A stretch of 64,000 nt of DNA, from positions 248,001 to 312,000 of the forward strand of contig NZ_VDCZ01000002.1 in NCBI RefSeq assembly GCF_006491645.1, read 5' to 3'. This document shows, piece after piece, positions 4,552 through 63,652 of the stretch. The stretch comes from Flavobacterium profundi. Lineage in GTDB: Bacteria > Bacteroidota > Bacteroidia > Flavobacteriales > Flavobacteriaceae. Position 1 is the first letter of the stretch. Every line of letters begins with the position of its first letter. The notes beneath the pieces were generated by a model, which worked only from the letters and a program-made list of their open reading frames with translations, was not told where the DNA came from and searched no databases. The position numbers were made by a program, and so were the translations under genes.

Positions 4552-4695
4552 CTTTGTTTCTTAAAATTTGAAGTCAAATATATTAATAATTTAAAGTTTA
4601 AAAAAGAACAATTAAAAATTGTTATCACTTTACGAATTAAACTTTTTTGAAAAAATTGTGTCATACACATACAAACCTATTTAACCTTACAAAAT

Positions 4696-5886
4696 ATGAG
4701 AGCTATTACAATTTTATTTTTTCTATTGAGTTGCTTATTTATATCTTGTTCCAAAGATACAAATGACACCTATGAATCGATCCCTGAGTATCCCAATGTA
4801 AAAGCTACTTTTGGAAATACTATTGATTTGAATAATTTGGAAAACTATGACAACCAATTTGTTCCATCTTATATAACCAAAGATAATAGCATTCTAAATC
4901 CAATCTCTAATAAAGGAGCTACTTTAGGAAGAGTTTTATTTTATGACACGAATTTATCTGTAGATCATACCATTGCATGTGCGAGTTGTCATAAACAAGA
5001 AAATGCATTTGGAGATAATGCACTTATGGCCAGCAACGGTGTTAACGGAGTTACTGGTAGACATTCGATGCGTTTAATCAACACTCGATTTGCTACCGAA
5101 ACTAAATTTTTCTGGGACGAAAGAGCAGCAAGTCTAGAAATTCAAACCACAATGCCCATTAAAGATCATGCGGAAATGGGTTTTAGTGGTACCAATGGCG
5201 ATTTATCTTTTGATGATTTGATTACTAGATTGGAAGGCATTGACTACTATAAAGAACTTTTCACTTTTGTATATGGAAATGAAGAAATCACAGAATCTAA
5301 AATACAAAACGCTTTAGCTCAGTTTATTAGAAGTATCCAATCTTTTGATTCTAAATATGATTCCGGAAGAACATTAGTTACTAATGACAACCAACCTTTT
5401 CCTAATTTTACCCAAAATGAAAATACAGGTAAAAATTTATTTTTAACACCTCCTCAGTTTGATGGAAATGGATCTCGTATTGGTGGTGGTGTAGGTTGCG
5501 CAGGATGTCATAGAGCACCAGAATTTGATATTGATCCTAATTCGCTTAATAACGGTATCACTGGAACCCTAAGTAACACTGGAATTGATATCACCAATAC
5601 GCGTGCACCTTCTTTACGAGACTTGGTAAAACAAGATGGTACGCTCAATTCAACCTTAATGCATACAGGTAATATTGCTACTTTACAAGCTGCAATTGGG
5701 CATTATAATACAATTACTATAGCACCTGGAAATACCAATTTAGATTCCAGATTACGACCAGGTGGCAACGGTCAACAATTAAATATGACAGGAGCAGAAA
5801 TGAATGCCTTACAATCTTTTCTATTAACTTTGGCAGGTTCAAATGTATATGTAGATTCGAAATGGAGTTCCCCTTTTGAAGAATAA
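4696..5886 (+). CDS. cytochrome-c peroxidase (CCP/MauG family) lipoprotein
   Basis: A 396-residue exported diheme protein. The N-terminus is a lipoprotein signal (FLLSCLFISC, Cys the likely lipidated residue), so it is anchored in the periplasm or outer membrane. Two c-type heme sites are visible: CASCH near residue 95 and CAGCH near residue 273. Around them are the family's GRVLFYD, RNTPSL-like (TRAPSLRD) and LMHTG segments. Members reduce hydrogen peroxide with electrons from cytochromes, or carry out MauG-type oxidations. It stands alone between fabG (divergent) and sucD (convergent), with a strong two-way terminator after it. Confidence 0.9.
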   Translation: MRAITILFFLLSCLFISCSKDTNDTYESIPEYPNVKATFGNTIDLNNLENYDNQFVPSYITKDNSILNPISNKGATLGRVLFYDTNLSVDHTIACASCHKQENAFGDNALMASNGVNGVTGRHSMRLINTRFATETKFFWDERAASLEIQTTMPIKDHAEMGFSGTNGDLSFDDLITRLEGIDYYKELFTFVYGNEEITESKIQNALAQFIRSIQSFDSKYDSGRTLVTNDNQPFPNFTQNENTGKNLFLTPPQFDGNGSRIGGGVGCAGCHRAPEFDIDPNSLNNGITGTLSNTGIDITNTRAPSLRDLVKQDGTLNSTLMHTGNIATLQAAIGHYNTITIAPGNTNLDSRLRPGGNGQQLNMTGAEMNALQSFLLTLAGSNVYVDSKWSSPFEE

Positions 5887-49503: not shown

Positions 49504-51771
49504 TTAATCCATAAAATTTAATGAAACGCCTTCTATGAATACCGCATTTTCTACTGGTTTTCCGTTTAAGCCTACGATTACCAATTGCACGGTAATGTTT
49601 TTCGCTCCATTATTTAAAACACGTTGTACCGCATCAGTAGCATCGATTTTATAATTTCGAGGTTCGTGATTGTGCAACGGTCTTCTATCGAATGTACGCG
49701 TATTGGGTAAGGGTAAATTACAATGTCCCGGACCACCAAAACAACTGCCGTTAAAGGTAGAAAAGGCTTCTACAAAATTAGGGTTATCGGTAATAGGCGT
49801 GTCTACAGAAGCATCAGGTGTGTTTAAGAAAACACGAATACTGGCATTTTGTAAATTCCCCATTTGAACACGGTGCAATACAATTTCCGCTTTGCGGTGT
49901 GCTTGTAAAGTGGTTTGTGAGACTTGTGCAGGAGCTGCTTTAAATTGGGTTAAACCCACCGCATTAGAAACCGGATAAAACACGGAATCTCTCATATAGG
50001 TATAGCCTAATTTCTGAATGCTCATTGCTTCTTTAACCGTTAAGGTCCAAGGTGCCATAACCGCATCCATTTCAAGTGGTGTACCAGTATGTTGTTCTTG
50101 CCATTTGGCCCAAATTCGGTCTACGTTAGAATGATGTCCCCAAAACAACGGATCAAACGCGGTAGTACGATTATCGGTCATCCAACCGTAAATAGGATTG
50201 TCTAAATTTTGTGGATCTGGAGTTAGGTTTAATTTTTGGTATATCTTAACCCAATCTTTGTTATTATCAGGATAATTCGGATTGGTTCCTCCTGAAAAAT
50301 TATGCATGCCATTGTGGACTTTTTCCAAAGCTCCAAAATAGTGGTCGTAAGCCGAACCACCACCCATATCGGCAAAGTTATTAATGTCTAAAATTAAGGC
50401 AATATCGTCTTTGGTTGGGTATTGTGAAATGGCAGCTGTACCATTTAAAGAACCGGGCCATCTATTTGGGAACCATAAGGGATTGACTTCTTTTAAAACG
50501 GTATACAAGGCATTGATTTTGGGTGACCAAATCGCAACATTATTCTGATTGATAATTTCATAATCGATGCCCGCTGCTTTTAAGAAACGCAATCCCGAAT
50601 TGAAAATAGTGCCTTTTTTGGTTAACGAAGCCAATGCGGTGGTTTCTTTGGGTGAAAACAATAACGAACCGTCAGCGGCTTTCATCGTACTTAGTTTTTC
50701 AAACCCTTTGGCAGTTAAAAAACAACCGTATGCATCGGGAATGACTCCTAAATCGAATTGCGAATTGTTAAACGTATTCGTATTTACATCCGCATAATCG
50801 GTCCAAGACCAATACGGCAATGATATGTTGGGGTTGTAATCTTGTAATTTTTGTTCGAAGAAATACAAATACAAACGGTGCCAAGGTAAGAATTGCTCCC
50901 AACCGTGCTGACACGAATTGGTGTGAATACGTGCCCAATAATCGAAACTTCTATCGTCTTGCCAATAGTCGTTGTATTGATTCATGCAATTAATGGCTTC
51001 ACGAAAAGTTTCCAATTCTTCAGCAGTTAACGAACTCACCTCTTTACGAACGGTTAAGCCATTCACGCTGGCTTTACTTTCGTTAGTAGGTGCTTGCGCT
51101 TGTGCATGCAACATTTCACCACGAGCTAAAGCCACTAAATTGCTCACTTTGGCTGTGGAAACCATTTGCAGTTTATTCGTTTGCTCCTCTTCTAACGTCA
51201 ACGGGCAACCCGAATCGATCCAATTGGCAATAAACTGAATTTGTTCAGCAGTAGCTTCATTGGTTGTGTCCCATAACAATTTAGGAAACATACTTCCATC
51301 GAAAGGATATTGGCCTTTTAAACCGATGATAATACCCGATTGGTCGCTTCTTTTCACTGTTGGAAAAGCACCACCTCCACCACTACTGCCACCCGAAGGC
51401 CAACAATCAGTAGTTACTTTAGGAGCCGCTAAGTTAGCCGAAGAAGTCAGTTTAGGTTGACTATCGATAGGTGCCGTTGCGGTTTCTTGAGAACCACAGC
51501 AGCCTTCTGTTTTTACGGGACTCATAGTTTTATCGGGTGCATGGGTTGCGGGAGCACTACTACCACAACATCCTGAAGCCGTCGTTTGGGTCGTAAGCCC
51601 GTCTTGAGGAGCAATTAAGCGTTGCCCATACAAAGACGCATTGAGGAATACCTCTGGATTTTGCCAGAAGGCATACAGGCCTTGATAACTGGGAATGGTA
51701 TTTCCTTGTAAAGTATCTAAAATAGAAACCACCTGGTCATACATTGCCTTTTGATTTTTGGTACTAGCCAT
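49504..51771 (-). CDS. tyrosinase-family copper oxidase with Cys-rich N-terminal region
   Basis: A 755-residue protein and first gene of the operon. The binuclear copper centre is complete: CuA from RIHTNSCQHGWEQFLPWHRLYLYFFE, CuB from EKVHNGMHNF and DPLFWGHHSNVDRIWAKW. The core of roughly 300 residues is surrounded by a long N-terminal region with two GCCGS motifs (residues 67-71 and 90-94), a Gly-rich linker, and FDGSMFPKLLWD...IANWIDSGCP, which resembles the C-terminal part of heme-less cytochrome-like domains. A C-terminal domain of about 150 residues follows. Tyrosinases hydroxylate phenols and oxidise catechols. Without a signal peptide its location is open. Confidence 0.92.
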   Translation of the reverse strand: MASTKNQKAMYDQVVSILDTLQGNTIPSYQGLYAFWQNPEVFLNASLYGQRLIAPQDGLTTQTTASGCCGSSAPATHAPDKTMSPVKTEGCCGSQETATAPIDSQPKLTSSANLAAPKVTTDCWPSGGSSGGGGAFPTVKRSDQSGIIIGLKGQYPFDGSMFPKLLWDTTNEATAEQIQFIANWIDSGCPLTLEEEQTNKLQMVSTAKVSNLVALARGEMLHAQAQAPTNESKASVNGLTVRKEVSSLTAEELETFREAINCMNQYNDYWQDDRSFDYWARIHTNSCQHGWEQFLPWHRLYLYFFEQKLQDYNPNISLPYWSWTDYADVNTNTFNNSQFDLGVIPDAYGCFLTAKGFEKLSTMKAADGSLLFSPKETTALASLTKKGTIFNSGLRFLKAAGIDYEIINQNNVAIWSPKINALYTVLKEVNPLWFPNRWPGSLNGTAAISQYPTKDDIALILDINNFADMGGGSAYDHYFGALEKVHNGMHNFSGGTNPNYPDNNKDWVKIYQKLNLTPDPQNLDNPIYGWMTDNRTTAFDPLFWGHHSNVDRIWAKWQEQHTGTPLEMDAVMAPWTLTVKEAMSIQKLGYTYMRDSVFYPVSNAVGLTQFKAAPAQVSQTTLQAHRKAEIVLHRVQMGNLQNASIRVFLNTPDASVDTPITDNPNFVEAFSTFNGSCFGGPGHCNLPLPNTRTFDRRPLHNHEPRNYKIDATDAVQRVLNNGAKNITVQLVIVGLNGKPVENAVFIEGVSLNFMD

Positions 51772-52149: not shown

Positions 52150-53655
52150 TTGAGAATATTAATTGACACAAACATTCTGATTAATCTTGAAGACAATAGA
52201 GTCATCAATAAACAGTTTTCAGAATTTTACAGATTAGCAATTACTAATAATTGTCAAGTTTTATATCATCCAAAAGCTATTCCTGTTGATATTAGTCGTG
52301 ACAAAAATTCTGATCGAAAAGAAATAATAAAGTCTAAACTTGATAAATACGAAAAGTTAAAAGACTATACTGAACCAACGACAGAGTTCAAAAAACATAT
52401 TGGTGAAAAAAAAGTTAATGACGAAATCGATAATAAACAACTTTATCAATTATCGAAAGGCTATGTAGACGTTTTAGTAACTCAAGATAAAGGAATTCAT
52501 ATAAATGCTAAAAAAATTGGCATTCAAGATAAAGTTTTAGACATTGAACAAATTCTAACTTTACTCGAAGAACAATTCACTATTAAAATCCCAAGCCATC
52601 CAATCCTCAAAGAGCATAGCATTAGGGAAATTGAAAATAAATTTAATTCAAGTTTTTTTGACAGCTTACGGGAGGATTATGGTGTAAAAGAATTTAATCT
52701 TTGGTTAGAAAAATGCGCAAGCAAAAACAGAAAATGCTATTCTTTAATAGTTGAAGATGAATTACAAGCAATCCTAATTTACAATTTAGAAACTGTTGAA
52801 GAACATCAATTAGAAAACATCTATGAAAAAGCATTAAAAATATGTACTTTCAAAGTTTCTGACACAGCATTTGGAATAAAACTTGGAGAATTATTTCTTC
52901 ACAAAATGTTTGAATATTGTATTAATCAAAAATTAAATTTCTTATATCTAACAGTTTACGAAAAACAAAATCATTTAATCAAACTATTAGAAACTTTCGG
53001 TTTCTATAAAGTTGAATTTATGAATAAACAAGGATTATTAGAAATTCAAATGATTAAATGTTTGGACAAAAAGAAATTAGTATCAAATGAAAATACTATA
53101 AATAATCATCCTTTTTATTTTGACAGCAAAAAAATCTCAAAGTTTGCAATTCCAATAAGACCAGATTATTATGAAAAACTTTTCAAAGATGGAAAACTTC
53201 GTGTTCCAACTTTGTTTGACACTTCACCAGATAGTGTTAATGAAATTCAAGGGAATACAATCATAAAAGCTTACATATCAAATTCTAAAATTAAAAACCT
53301 TAAAAAAGGGGATTTACTTTTCTTCTATTCTTCAAAAACAAATCAAGAAATTGAACCTGTAGGAATTCTAGAAACTATACAAATAGTAAAAGATTTCGAT
53401 GAACTATGGAACTTAGTTGGCAAAAAGACTGTATTTTCGCAACAAGATTTATTAAAGAAACTAGATGAGAAGAAGGAATTGAACGTAATTACATTCAGGC
53501 TAATAACTTACTTAAAAAAGAAAGTAAAATTGGCGAAAATAAAAGAAATCGAAAGTTTCAAAAATAAAATACAAACTATTACAAGAATATCAGAAACCGA
53601 TTATCAAGAACTGAAAAATGAAGGATACTTTGACAAGCGTTATATTATCGATTAA
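52150..53655 (+). CDS. PIN - GNAT - PUA/EVE-like fusion protein
   Basis: A 501-residue cytoplasmic protein starting at TTG 52150 (MRILIDTNILINLEDNRV); no ATG precedes it in frame and the text is a natural PIN start. Residues 1-140 are a PIN-like nuclease domain with acidic residues D6, D94, D107 and D113 (VDVLVTQDKG). About 150-305 reads like a GNAT acetyltransferase (CYSLIVEDELQAILIYNL, FGIKLGELFLHKMFEYC, LYLTVYEKQNHLIKLLETFGFYKV). About 320-500 is a PUA/EVE-like domain (IPIRPDYYEKLFKDG, KKGDLLFFYSS). It could cut and modify RNA, for example tRNA. It overlaps the ASCH gene by 38 nt, so the two are coupled. Confidence 0.7.
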   Translation: MRILIDTNILINLEDNRVINKQFSEFYRLAITNNCQVLYHPKAIPVDISRDKNSDRKEIIKSKLDKYEKLKDYTEPTTEFKKHIGEKKVNDEIDNKQLYQLSKGYVDVLVTQDKGIHINAKKIGIQDKVLDIEQILTLLEEQFTIKIPSHPILKEHSIREIENKFNSSFFDSLREDYGVKEFNLWLEKCASKNRKCYSLIVEDELQAILIYNLETVEEHQLENIYEKALKICTFKVSDTAFGIKLGELFLHKMFEYCINQKLNFLYLTVYEKQNHLIKLLETFGFYKVEFMNKQGLLEIQMIKCLDKKKLVSNENTINNHPFYFDSKKISKFAIPIRPDYYEKLFKDGKLRVPTLFDTSPDSVNEIQGNTIIKAYISNSKIKNLKKGDLLFFYSSKTNQEIEPVGILETIQIVKDFDELWNLVGKKTVFSQQDLLKKLDEKKELNVITFRLITYLKKKVKLAKIKEIESFKNKIQTITRISETDYQELKNEGYFDKRYIID

Positions 53656-54046
53656 ACCAATTTACGCACAAGCAATAATTGAAGGAACGAAAAAAGTAGA
53701 ATTTCGTAAAAAAATTTTCAAACGAGAAGTTGAAAAAATTTTTATTTATTCTTCAACGCCAAAGAAAATGATGATTGGTTATTTTACAATATTAGACATT
53801 GTTGAAGATACACCAATAAATTTGTGGAATGAGTTTAAAGAAGTTGGAGGTATATCTGAAAAAGACTTTTTTGAATATTACAAAAATGTTGAAAAAGGTT
53901 TTTCGATTAAAATAAATGAAGTCGTAAAATTTGAAAAAGAAATTGATCCAGAAGATTTTATTGAAGAATTTTGTGCTCCACAATCATATATATATATTGA
54001 AGAAAAAACGACTGCTAACAGCGGTTTTAAGAAATTGGGAGTTTAG
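53618..54046 (+). CDS. ASCH-domain protein, partner of the PIN-GNAT fusion
   Basis: A 142-residue protein of the ASCH/PUA fold: VILSIKPIYAQAIIEGTKKVEFRKKIF is the signature N-terminal strand-helix with the GxKxxExR pattern, followed by KIFIYSSTPKKMMIGYFTILDI. ASCH domains bind or process RNA and modified nucleosides. The last ~10 codons (TTANSGFKKLGV) are encoded by the attC site, a feature of cassette genes. It overlaps the upstream gene by 38 nt, so it may be the antitoxin-like or specificity partner. Confidence 0.8.
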   Translation: MKDTLTSVILSIKPIYAQAIIEGTKKVEFRKKIFKREVEKIFIYSSTPKKMMIGYFTILDIVEDTPINLWNEFKEVGGISEKDFFEYYKNVEKGFSIKINEVVKFEKEIDPEDFIEEFCAPQSYIYIEEKTTANSGFKKLGV

Positions 54047-55524: not shown

Positions 55525-55610
55525 AAACCAACGCCCAACATTCGTTTTTAGCAATTACTAAACTCTTTCAAAGAACTCCTTTCCTAAAACATCTCATTTT
55601 TACCCCAATA

Positions 55611-55774
55611 ACCTAAAATTTTACCTCAAGGACTTAAAAGTTTAAGTAGCACACCTAAAATTTTATGTCTGGGACTTAAAATTTTAAGTAGGGAGACGTA
55701 AAATTTTATCTCAACAACATAAAATTTTAAGTCGGGAACATAAAATTTTAACCTCGACACATAAAATTTTATGT
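55611..55774. repeat. eight A4T4 palindromes spaced 21-22 bp
   Basis: TAAAATTTTA (once TAAAAGTTTA) starts at 55614, 55635, 55656, 55677, 55699, 55720, 55741 and 55762: steps of 21, 21, 21, 22, 21, 21 and 21. Each unit begins AC and keeps the palindrome in the same phase. The 21-bp step equals two turns of B-DNA, so the A4T4 tracts face one side of the helix. No arms or spacers as in CRISPR. It lies 95 bp before the gene at 55869, in an otherwise empty 345-bp gap. Confidence 0.9.
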
Positions 55775-55868
55775 TTTTTCATGCATTTAACATATTTATA
55801 ACACATTTCATACCATTTGTGGCATATCATTTGTAAATAGTTTCTTATAACAAATAAATAGTACAAAT

Positions 55869-56366
55869 ATGTCATTAAACAATTTAGGAGTATACCATCT
55901 TACTCCAGCACAGAAACAAGCTATTGACGATGCTTTGGCGAGCATTGAAGCAAATTTAACTTCGGTTACTCAAAACTTATCTAATGAAGAGCGTCAGAAA
56001 TTTGGTAGCATTAAAGAAACCAATAAGTTATTGGTAAACAAATGCCGCGAATTTCAACAAACCCAAAGTAGCTTGGCTTCTCCCGATGTGGATTGGGTAG
56101 AATTTGAAGCCGATTTTCAAGATCGTCTTTTTGCCGATACCCGTTTAGACCGTTTGGCAACGATTACACGCATGTTGAGTGACTTTAAAATTGTACACGA
56201 TTACGACAATTACCAAGATGCCCTCACCGATTATGATTTTAGTAAATACAAATCCACAACTAAAACGCCTGGTTTTACTGGAAAAGTAGACGAACTGAGA
56301 CAGTTCTTCCCAAATACAAGTGCCAGCAGTACATTGGTTACCAAAAATAATCCTACTACCGAATAA
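55869..56366 (+). CDS. conserved small helical protein, likely highly expressed
   Basis: Not recognised by function. A 165-residue soluble protein that looks almost all helical up to residue 135: LTPAQKQAIDDALASIEANLTSVTQ, ERQKFGSIKETNKLLVNKCREFQ, DWVEFEADFQDRLFADTRLDRLATITRMLSDF. The Ser/Thr-rich end is NTSASSTLVTKNNPTTE. The codons are noticeably less AT-rich than those of the flanking cassette genes, which would suit strong expression or a different history. It is preceded by the phased A4T4 array and followed by a good terminator, so it is a one-gene transcript. Confidence 0.75.
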   Translation: MSLNNLGVYHLTPAQKQAIDDALASIEANLTSVTQNLSNEERQKFGSIKETNKLLVNKCREFQQTQSSLASPDVDWVEFEADFQDRLFADTRLDRLATITRMLSDFKIVHDYDNYQDALTDYDFSKYKSTTKTPGFTGKVDELRQFFPNTSASSTLVTKNNPTTE

Positions 56367-56416: not shown

Positions 56417-56447
56417 AAAAGAGTGTCGTAAAGGCACTCTTTTTTTG
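56417..56447 (+). terminator. intrinsic terminator
   Basis: AAAAGAGTG and CACTCTTTT stem with a short loop and a run of T, 50 nt after the stop of the 55869 gene. Confidence 0.85.
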
Positions 56448-61913: not shown

Positions 61914-62999
61914 ATGGAACAATTTATAGTATCAGCTCGAAAATACCGTCCGCAAACCTTTAAAGATGTTGTGGGACAGAAAGCTATTACCAATACTTTG
62001 TTGAATGCCATTGAAACCAATCACTTAGCGCAAGCCTTGTTATTTACAGGTCCGAGAGGTGTTGGTAAAACCACTTGTGCGCGTATTTTGGCACGAAAAA
62101 TCAATCAGGAAGGTTACGATGATCCGAATGAAGATTTTTCATTTAATGTATTCGAATTGGATGCGGCATCCAATAATGGTGTGGATGACATTCGTAGCAT
62201 TATCGATCAAGTACGCATCCCACCACAAACTGGAAAATACAAAGTATATATCATTGATGAGGTGCACATGTTGTCTCAGGCTGCTTTTAATGCTTTTTTA
62301 AAGACGTTAGAAGAACCGCCTAAACATGCCATTTTTATTTTAGCAACTACTGAAAAACATAAAATTATCCCAACGATTTTATCGCGTTGTCAAATTTTTG
62401 ATTTCAAACGTATTACGGTTAATGATGCCAAAGAACATTTAGCAGAAATTGCCAAAGAACAAGGTGTAACTTTTGAAGATGATGCTTTGCACATTATTGC
62501 GCAAAAAGCTGATGGTGCGATGCGTGATGCTTTATCCATTTTTGACCGAGTGGTTTCGTATTGTGGCACCAATTTAACGCGTCAGGCAGTAACCGAAAAT
62601 TTAAACGTACTTGATTTTGAATATTATATTAAAATCACCGATTTAATTTTAGAAAATAAAATTCCGGAATTGCTTTTAGCCTATAATGATATTTTATCGA
62701 AAGGATTTGACGGACATCATTTTGTTGCCGGTTTGGCATCTCATTTTAGAGATTTATTAGTGTGTAAAAACCCTGTTACTCTTGCACTTTTAGAAGCTGG
62801 AGAACAAGCACAAACCTTATATGCTGCTCAATCCCAAAAAGCGTCACAATCTTTTTTATTACAAGGAATTGAATTGGCAAACGACACCGACTTAAAGTAT
62901 AAAACGAGTCAGAATCAACGTTTGCTTGTAGAACTCTGCTTAATGCAATTGGCCTCTATCACTATTGATGGAGAAAAAAAAAAGCTAAGTCCTTTATAA
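61914..62999 (+). CDS. dnaX: DNA polymerase III gamma subunit (dnaX, zero frame)
   Basis: Clamp-loader ATPase that loads the beta clamp at the replication fork. The zero frame codes 361 residues: YRPQTFKDVVGQKAITNTL, GPRGVGKTTCARILA (Walker A), KVYIIDEVHMLSQAAFNAFLKTLEEPP (Walker B and sensor), ATTEKHKIIPTILSRC, GAMRDALSIFDR and clamp-loader domain III to about residue 355. The zinc-binding Cys4 loop found in most DnaX is absent (after ARKINQEGYDDPNED), as in other Bacteroidota. The frame ends EKKKLSPL after ten A residues, where a -1 shift opens the tau tail; gamma alone would be complete through domain III. Confidence 0.92.
   Translation: MEQFIVSARKYRPQTFKDVVGQKAITNTLLNAIETNHLAQALLFTGPRGVGKTTCARILARKINQEGYDDPNEDFSFNVFELDAASNNGVDDIRSIIDQVRIPPQTGKYKVYIIDEVHMLSQAAFNAFLKTLEEPPKHAIFILATTEKHKIIPTILSRCQIFDFKRITVNDAKEHLAEIAKEQGVTFEDDALHIIAQKADGAMRDALSIFDRVVSYCGTNLTRQAVTENLNVLDFEYYIKITDLILENKIPELLLAYNDILSKGFDGHHFVAGLASHFRDLLVCKNPVTLALLEAGEQAQTLYAAQSQKASQSFLLQGIELANDTDLKYKTSQNQRLLVELCLMQLASITIDGEKKKLSPL
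62974..62984 (+). promoter_or_regulatory. slippery A-run for dnaX frameshift
   Basis: Ten A then G. Read in frame it contains A AAA AAG at 62978-62984, the same heptamer that E. coli dnaX uses for -1 frameshifting. The run is also long enough for RNA polymerase slippage. Confidence 0.7.
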
Positions 63000-63652
63000 T
63001 TCCAGCTACATATTTTAGAAACGGAGGTTATTCGATAACGGAAGTTAAAACTCAAAAGCCTGAAATTGAAAGTCCGAAGGCTGAAATTAAAAGTCCAAAG
63101 TCGAAAGTTGAAAGTCAAGTTACTGAAAACAGACCACAGCCAACAGAAAACAAACCACAGCTAACGGAGAACAACCCCCAAACGGATACGAGTCCGAAAA
63201 TATCGGCTTTATCTTTATCGAGCATTCGTGCAAAAAAAGAACTAGAAGCCAAACAAGCTTTACATCAAAAGCATCATGAAGAATTACCCACAGAAGCTTT
63301 TACTGAAACCGATATGCTCTTGTTGTGGAATAAGTTTGCCCAACGCTTAACCGATCAAGGAAAACGTTTAATGGCAACCTACATGCAAATGAATGATCCA
63401 GTACTTAATGGTACAACGATTACCTTAGAATTACCCAACCAAAGTACGAAAGAAGAATTTTTAAGTGGTTATCATGATCTTTTAGGCTATTTAAGAGGCA
63501 AACTACACAATCACGACATTACAATTGAAGTTAAGGTAAACGAAGTTTCTGAGACCAAATATGCATTTACACCGCAAGAAAAATTTGAAAAACTAAAAAC
63601 CATCAATCCAAATATTGAATTGTTGAAGAAATTGTTTGATTTGGATGTTTAA
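62984..63652 (+). CDS. dnaX: tau-specific C-terminal part of dnaX (-1 frame)
   Basis: From the slippery run the -1 frame is open for 222 codons to the stop at 63652, giving a tau of about 579 residues. A Pro/Lys/Glu-rich linker (IESPKAEIKSPKSKVES and PQPTENKPQ repeats) leads to a folded domain with TETDMLLLWNKFAQRLTDQGKRL and LPNQSTKEEFLSGYHDLLGYLR, then KLKTINPNIELLKKLFDLDV. This is the usual C-terminal domain of Bacteroidota DnaX that contacts the polymerase core or helicase. It has no start of its own worth calling, so expression needs the shift. Confidence 0.85.
   Translation, partial: AKSFIIPATYFRNGGYSITEVKTQKPEIESPKAEIKSPKSKVESQVTENRPQPTENKPQLTENNPQTDTSPKISALSLSSIRAKKELEAKQALHQKHHEELPTEAFTETDMLLLWNKFAQRLTDQGKRLMATYMQMNDPVLNGTTITLELPNQSTKEEFLSGYHDLLGYLRGKLHNHDITIEVKVNEVSETKYAFTPQEKFEKLKTINPNIELLKKLFDLDV

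What the first reader, a model, noticed from the sequence alone, without database searches (positions are those of the whole stretch)
55611..55774. Eight A4T4 palindromes in helical phase, 21 bp apart
TAAAATTTTA recurs at 55614, 55635, 55656, 55677, 55699, 55720, 55741 and 55762. Steps are 21 bp with one 22, that is two helical turns. A4T4 in phase is the strongest known pattern for static bending. The bases between differ, so selection acts on phase and palindrome, not on a simple tandem copy. It ends 95 bp before a likely highly expressed gene: an upstream bend, a multi-site operator or a nucleoid/partition-protein platform.
Basis: partly seen in the sequence, partly recalled or inferred. 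Interest (0 to 1): 0.76.

Follow-up and report, generated by a model that had tools for sequence, protein, structure and literature searches.

The report
Gene-linked, helix-phased palindrome arrays in Flavobacterium
Beside most sampled members of an orphan family of small genes in Flavobacterium lies a row of DNA units, often mirror-symmetric, repeated every 21-22 base pairs (two helical turns), whose sequence differs from locus to locus while the spacing stays; the row is likely a landing platform for a paired DNA-binding protein.

Summary
The array is real: seven exact and one one-mismatch TAAAATTTTA at the stated places, steps 21,21,21,22,21,21,21. It is one of six in the genome and lies before the same gene in five relatives. 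The unit consensus is the palindrome RACNTAAAATTTTANGTY. Between orthologous arrays the core changes at 1.3% of sites, the variable spacer at 21.5%, flanks at 18.5%. The main finding lies outside the coordinates: the downstream gene (55869-56366) belongs to an orphan family in 45 of 398 Flavobacterium genomes, and 49 of 60 family loci have a 21/22-bp periodic array beside them. Cores differ between loci (AAATTT, TGGTNNACCA, ACTTTAAAGT types) while period and ACS/SGT flanks recur. Predicted bending is strong here but absent in 9 of 38 linked arrays with the same phase. I read the array as a one-face, multi-site platform for a dimeric DNA-binding protein. That protein is unidentified; the linked product is the first candidate, though 8 of 18 strong-array genomes lack the gene. 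Function is untested.

The parts
55614..55771 (.). Array of eight palindromic units (seven TAAAATTTTA, one TAAAAGTTTA at 55635), steps 21,21,21,22,21,21,21
55610..55627 (.). First unit with its flanks, AACCTAAAATTTTACCTC; the left flank fits RACN, the right flank CCTC departs from NGTY
   Evidence: sequence; consensus from 239 units
55606..55613 (+). CAATAACC, an end motif seen at one end of several other arrays (as CAATAACC or GGTTATTG)
   Evidence: read by eye; no statistical test
55699..55708 (.). Unit after the only 22-bp step (12-bp spacer AGTAGGGAGACG at 55687-55698, kept with one or two changes in two relatives)
55772..55868 (+). Upstream region of the gene, well conserved in G000, NRK F7, J27 and F. 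jejuense, not in G010
   Evidence: alignment
55869..56366 (+). Linked orphan gene, 165 aa, pI 4.96, predicted all-helical with a helix of residues 76-130
56420..56447 (+). Terminator-like hairpin with T run after the linked gene
   Evidence: read from the sequence; not scored

Best explanation
The row of eight palindromes is likely a multi-site landing platform on which copies of a symmetric (dimeric) DNA-binding protein would sit side by side on one face of the helix, and it forms a linked pair with the orphan gene beside it. Shown: the unit, its 21/22-bp phase, conservation of the core, linkage of such arrays to the gene family across species, and copies at other intergenic sites of which more than half resemble the linked array of their own genome best. 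Inferred: that a protein binds it; that each unit takes one dimer, with half-sites ACS-core-half / core-half-SGT; that the bound array forms a stiff or curved nucleoprotein. Guessed: that the binder is the linked 165-aa protein or a partner of it, and that the whole acts as an anchoring or organising site on the chromosome rather than as the operator of one gene.
For: Phase: in 450 bp downstream of the gene in 58 loci, autocorrelation peaks at lags 21, 42, 43, 63, 64, 22; 49 of 60 loci exceed the control's 98th percentile on one side. 44 of 59 loci have such an array within 1 kb, against 0 of 47 control loci, or 3 of 50 with the three loci that I left out because one search had shown dispersed arrays there. 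Symmetry: mean 2.65 of 5 complementary core pairs against 1.31 in a composition null, 480 units. As parsed, the core stays 10 bp while the spacer is 11 or 12 (the finder assumes the 10). Selection: 11 orthologous array comparisons, core 10/800, AC/GT 23/320, variable spacer 108/503, flank 227/1227 changed. No complementary covariation at the bases next to the core, which speaks against RNA or cruciform stems. By eye, about 25 of the 40 loci printed have a terminator-like hairpin between gene and downstream region, which points to DNA-level action there. Co-evolution: core similarity follows protein similarity (Mantel r 0.25, 0 of 2000 permutations, 38 loci) and the side of the array changed once on the protein tree; 23 of 38 dispersed arrays (22 of 37 without one entered twice) best match the linked array of their own genome among 41.
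Against: No binding data. The linked protein matches no known DNA-binding family significantly and is acidic. Arrays sit beside unrelated genes, as mobile junk would. After rnhB the array is present in G010 and absent in the window's own genome. In the comparisons left out of the sum (G000-G010 and three pairs within G010) the core changed at 7-14% against 22-64% in the variable spacer, so conservation is weaker there. Below 70% protein identity the core-protein correlation is weak (r 0.10). Two TCAAATTTGA arrays of G010 match no linked array there. 11 of 60 family loci fail the test (three have short flanks; L017, L019, L265, L268 have AT-rich 21-bp rows by TRF). A few TRF hits, such as L269 and L274, look like simple AT-rich repeats.
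Confidence: 0.5

Rival explanations
1. A mobile, non-coding minisatellite of the BrickBuilt/MITE type: copies spread by an unknown transposase or by recombination, and homogeneity comes from tandem amplification.
For: Six arrays each in G000 and G084, eight in G010 counting one short copy; three G010 arrays at different sites align end to end with shared spacers and ends. Array-bearing and array-free versions of one site. Arrays lie between genes, apart from a mechanical 72-aa ORF over one. BrickBuilt of Porphyromonas gingivalis, also in Bacteroidetes, is intergenic and present 19 times (PMC4596501).
Against: Neutral amplification does not hold cores at 1.3% change beside spacers at 21.5%. By eye I saw no terminal inverted repeat pair or target duplication. 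The tight link to one gene family is not explained.
Confidence: 0.25
2. An intrinsically bent DNA element selected for curvature as such.
For: Strong predicted curvature in 19 of 19 TAAAATTTTA arrays and in 29 of 38 linked arrays at the 5% level.
Against: 9 of 38 linked arrays keep the phase without predicted excess curvature. In 18 of 19 arrays an all-21-bp version is predicted to bend more than the real 21/22 mix. The central AT, which A4T4 needs most, is the least conserved part of the core.
Confidence: 0.1
3. An array of RNA hairpins (transcribed palindromes), for example an mRNA tail or a sponge RNA.
For: Both strands fold better than shuffles (z -5.5 and -4.9). By eye, in about nine family loci the array begins right after the stop codon without a hairpin terminator before it, so it could be transcribed there.
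Against: Both strands do so alike, as any palindrome array would; no covariation beside the core; no Rfam match in the arrays of seven loci; about 25 of 40 printed loci have a terminator-like hairpin before the array, and in the window's clade it is upstream.
Confidence: 0.07
4. A multi-site operator that regulates the linked gene.
For: Array 58-115 bp upstream of the gene in six species of the window's clade, at 91-92 bp in four of them.
Against: In most other family loci the periodic flank is downstream (43 of 58 against 7 of 58 upstream), and siblings lie beside rnhB, hemN and others.
Confidence: 0.08

Closest known systems
BrickBuilt and MITEPgRS minisatellite MITEs of Porphyromonas gingivalis (PMC4596501; abstract, sections 5 and 9, and part 1 of 2 of section 7 read)
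   Same: Bacteroidetes; tandem units of about 20 bp; intergenic; copies gain and lose whole units
   Different: 23-nt (41-nt) direct repeats with leader, tail and IS5-like terminal inverted repeats; not reported as palindromic, helix-phased at 21/22 bp, or linked to a gene family in the parts read
Tandem centromere of plasmid F, sopC with SopB/ParB (details recalled; one search listed papers only)
   Same: Works like: many palindromic sites for a dimer in a row; a 43-bp period equals two units here (21+22)
   Different: Linked protein here shows no ParB, HTH or ParA match of significance; chromosomal, several arrays per genome; core sequence turns over between loci
Plasmid iterons, 17-22 bp (recalled)
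   Same: Two-helical-turn spacing of protein sites
   Different: Iterons are mostly direct repeats next to a rep gene; units here are palindromes and the linked protein matches no Rep family
REP/BIME elements with RAYT transposase (PMC3733652 and PMC3116915 seen in the search listing only)
   Same: Intergenic palindromes in many places
   Different: No Y1_Tnp gene in G000 or G084; REPs carry a GTAG or CGTC tag (listing title) and are GC-rich hairpins (recalled)

Membership tests
BrickBuilt-type MITE | 23-nt tandem unit | tested here: not met
   period 21/22
BrickBuilt-type MITE | terminal inverted repeats and target-site duplication | tested here: inconclusive
   by eye only: a shared motif CAATAACC at one end, the other end varies; the array-free rnhB site does not align well enough to see a duplication
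REP/BIME with RAYT | Y1_Tnp (RAYT) gene in the genome | tested here: not met
   PF01797: no match in G000 and G084, one in G010
CRISPR | identical repeats with unique spacers of about repeat length | tested here: not met
   spacers 11-12 bp with recurring SGTY..RACS ends; some spacers recur. cas genes were not searched for
ParABS centromere | linked ParB-like protein | tested here: not met
   linked protein has no significant Pfam, NCBIfam or PHROGs match. A ParB encoded elsewhere was not tested
Iteron origin | linked replication initiator | tested here: not met
   no Rep domain among the ten proteins scanned around the window array
Known RNA family | Rfam match over the array | tested here: not met
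   in seven loci only two Flavo-1 hits and a sub-threshold ceN81, none on an array
Known protein fold for the linked gene | clear PDB or viral structure match | tested here: inconclusive

The most novel reading that the evidence does not exclude
A new two-part genetic system: an orphan helical protein and its own hypervariable palindromic satellite, locked to two helical turns, that evolve together as centromere proteins and satellites do in eukaryotes. The satellite seeds further arrays over the chromosome, which the same protein (or a partner of it) would bind as a private set of anchoring sites.
Probability: 0.3. Interest if true: 0.92.

Novelty: categorically new. Interest (0 to 1): 0.8.

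Why it matters
A tandem array is normally recognised by its sequence. Here the core sequence turns over between loci and species while period, partial symmetry and the neighbouring gene are kept. If a protein binds it, the family offers dozens of natural pairs of sites and proteins, a test bed for how a DNA-binding specificity changes together with all its sites. It would also give a function to an unnamed protein family and to a class of intergenic arrays that annotation passes over. The searches made (open-licence PMC papers only, top listings seen) showed no paper that describes it.

Tried and rejected
REP/RAYT origin: rejected, no Y1_Tnp in G000 and G084. RNA structure: folds well but without covariation beside the core. 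In one search the apparent covariation at the spacer ends was set aside, since choosing the smaller of two strands biases it. Phage or plasmid origin of the gene: no match in viral contigs, plasmids or phages. Viral contigs hold pairs or short rows of the motif, none of them an array of this type by eye. Rfam: nothing in the arrays of the seven loci given. Phylum survey with the AAATTT pattern: 11 of 395 genomes match, three of them more than once (G000, G373, G126), so the AAATTT form is largely a Flavobacterium matter. Two loci outside the genus do show array-like flanks beside the gene: Chryseobacterium taichungense L056 and G040 L012. Structure comparison gave no usable match; a missing match does not show a new fold. 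F. psychrophilum VNTRs in one table are 4-9 bp units, not this (PMC4501049, passages only).

First curvature run had the wrong sign: its control made T4A4 curved. It was discarded; one search chose the sign that makes A4T4 curved, as known from Hagerman (recalled), and one search was run with it. The wedge values are recalled.

Sampling notes: the 59 loci are 57 of the 62 places (G305, G420, both G453 pieces and G091 left out) plus two (G040). The control of 47 loci left out L096, L126 and L127, which were already known to carry arrays. One search used 60 loci (plus L056, itself found through an array pattern), 58 with enough flank on each side. Several genomes are sister species, so loci are not fully independent. 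In one search one G238 array was entered twice (L221, L276) and one chosen locus (L287) gave no array.

Full report
Observation. The array at 55614-55771 is as described except that the unit at 55635 is TAAAAGTTTA. It is not chance. The gap to the ATG of the next gene is 97 bp.

It is a family. The same genome has six arrays: this one, one on C2 near 15.6 kb, two on C5 near 9 kb, two on C6. Flavobacterium sp. NRK F7 (handle G084, recognised by its contig length) has six in corresponding places, and G010 has eight counting one short copy. With up to one mismatch the paired motif is found in 18 of 150 genomes, own included: 29, 18 and 18 times in G000, G010 and G084 and once or twice in the other 15. 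Named species with three units in a row include F. jejuense, Flavobacterium sp. J27 and sp. 9AF.

Unit. Over 239 units of 26 loci the consensus is RACNTAAAATTTTANGTY. The inner AAA and TTT are nearly fixed, the outer T and A about 1.6 bits, the central AT 1.1-1.3, AC and GT about 1.2, the base beside the core nearly free. Steps are 130 of 21, 79 of 22, one of 42. The finder fixed the core length at 10 and favoured steps of 21-22, so the period is better shown by the unconstrained autocorrelation below. Several arrays alternate 21 and 22, a 43-bp superperiod.

Selection. In 11 comparisons of orthologous arrays, changes per aligned base were core 10/800, AC/GT 23/320, rest of the spacer 108/503, 60-bp flanks 227/1227. 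The species pairs overlap, so these are not 11 independent tests. Four further comparisons were left out of the sum: G000-G010 (core 6/80, variable 32/50) and three pairs of arrays within G010 (core 10-13 of 90, variable 13-26 of 60). Whole units are gained and lost.

Dispersal. Three G010 arrays at different sites align end to end with shared spacers and ends. The region after rnhB holds an array in G010 (255 bp to the next gene) and only a 20-bp gap in the window's genome, where the next gene has the same orientation and length class; that it is the same gene was not tested. None of the other rnhB loci listed there (L097-L111) has an array. The hemN 3' array is in 2 of 19 hemN loci (G000, G084), and the alignment puts arrays of F. 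jejuense and J27 at that place too. Neighbours of the arrays are unrelated: RNase HII, lipoyl ligase, peptidase, ABC protein, QPRTase and others.

The linked gene. The 165-aa product of 55869-56366 has no significant Pfam, NCBIfam, PHROGs or PADLOC match. It has 269 homologues in the large protein set, 120 of them listed; the names shown say hypothetical or uncharacterised. Its predicted model is all-helical with one helix of 55 residues and has no convincing structural match. Relatives of it turned up in loci that had been fetched for their arrays alone: L056, L206, L212 from array searches, and L157, L162, L181 among the 47 loci. Of those 47, 20 show no array by either finder and 27 do; so 3 of 27 hold the gene within the fetched 3 kb and 24 do not.

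Linkage test. The gene is in 45 of 398 Flavobacterium genomes. Within 1 kb of it, 44 of 59 loci have an array by motif finder or TRF (18 and 42), against 0 of 47 control loci at rnhB and hemN; three further control loci with known dispersed arrays had been left out, so 3 of 50 is the fuller figure. A motif-free test gave autocorrelation peaks at 21, 42, 43, 63, 64 and 22 downstream and 49 of 60 loci above the control's 98th percentile (43 of 58 downstream, 7 of 58 upstream). A finder built on SGTY-N3/4-RACS alone gave 38 of 60 against 0 of 47. By genome, 10 of 18 with a strong array (E <= 1e-6) have the gene, against 35 of 380 others (Fisher p 3e-6); linked arrays count on both sides of that table.

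What varies and what does not. Read by eye in the 40 loci, the array usually follows the gene; about 25 of the 40 have a terminator-like hairpin first, and in about nine the array starts right after the stop codon. Consensus cores include TAAAATTTTA, CCAAATTTGG, TCAAATTTGA, TGAAATTTCA, TCAACGTTGA, TGGTTGACCA, ACTTTAAAGT and TATTTTAATA. Cores are more palindromic than chance (2.65 against 1.31 of 5 pairs), though several consensus cores are not palindromes. On the protein tree the side of the array changes once, and core type follows the tree (Mantel r 0.25, 0 of 2000), but weakly between distant proteins (r 0.10). The labels for side were set by me; loci without a clear side were left unlabelled.

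Trans link. Of 38 dispersed arrays, 23 share most 8-mers with the gene-linked array of their own genome among 41 linked arrays; without the double entry it is 22 of 37, with about 2 expected at random (my arithmetic). G000 and G084 were not scored against each other. Failures include two TCAAATTTGA arrays in G010.

Bending. With wedge values that make A4T4 curved and T4A4 straight, all 19 TAAAATTTTA arrays tested are predicted to be more curved than shuffles (at most 1 of 200 reaches them), and re-spacing to 16 or 26 bp removes it; in 18 of 19 an all-21-bp version would be more curved than the real one. Among 38 linked arrays, 29 exceed shuffles at 5% and 9 do not, among them TGGTTGACCA, ACTTTAAAGT and TGGTTCACCA arrays that keep the phase. 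Bending is therefore a predicted property of some members.

Reading. Core geometry, symmetry, one-face phase, conservation of the core and co-variation with a linked protein fit a platform for a dimeric binder. The binder is not known. The linked protein is the first candidate by linkage only; its acidity, the lack of a known DNA-binding domain and genomes with arrays but no gene (8 of the 18, two of them incomplete) speak against it being the only one. A mobile minisatellite that has been put to use is the main rival and may be true at the same time.

Noticed in passing
L210 3683-3873, L211 3987-4199 (G010): A second class of arrays (TCAAATTTGA, with TCATGNATGA-like units between) in a genome whose linked arrays are of another type; orphan arrays.
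   Followed up: partly
L021 about 5119-5190, L075 about 4560-4640: Another dispersed repeat (GTCACCCTGTAA...CATAA) close to the arrays in these genomes.
   Followed up: no
L022, L010, L242: Strict or near-strict 21/22 alternation in some arrays, i.e. a 43-bp double unit, as if two neighbouring sites made one larger site.
   Followed up: partly
L020 2379-2474 (-), L079 6607-6676 (+): Flavo-1 sRNA matches above the Rfam gathering score.
   Followed up: no
window 52150-54046: Overlapping genes with an EVE domain and an ASCH domain, a modified-base or RNA reader-like pair.
   Followed up: no
window 49504-51771: Large protein (755 aa) with a tyrosinase domain.
   Followed up: no
window 63041-63174: 21-bp tandem repeats just beyond the end of the 361-aa ORF at 61914-62999; may be coding or chance in period.
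   Followed up: no
L017, L019, L265, L268: In the uvrC-linked clade of the gene, AT-rich 21-bp rows lie upstream (TRF only; not caught by the motif finders).
   Followed up: partly
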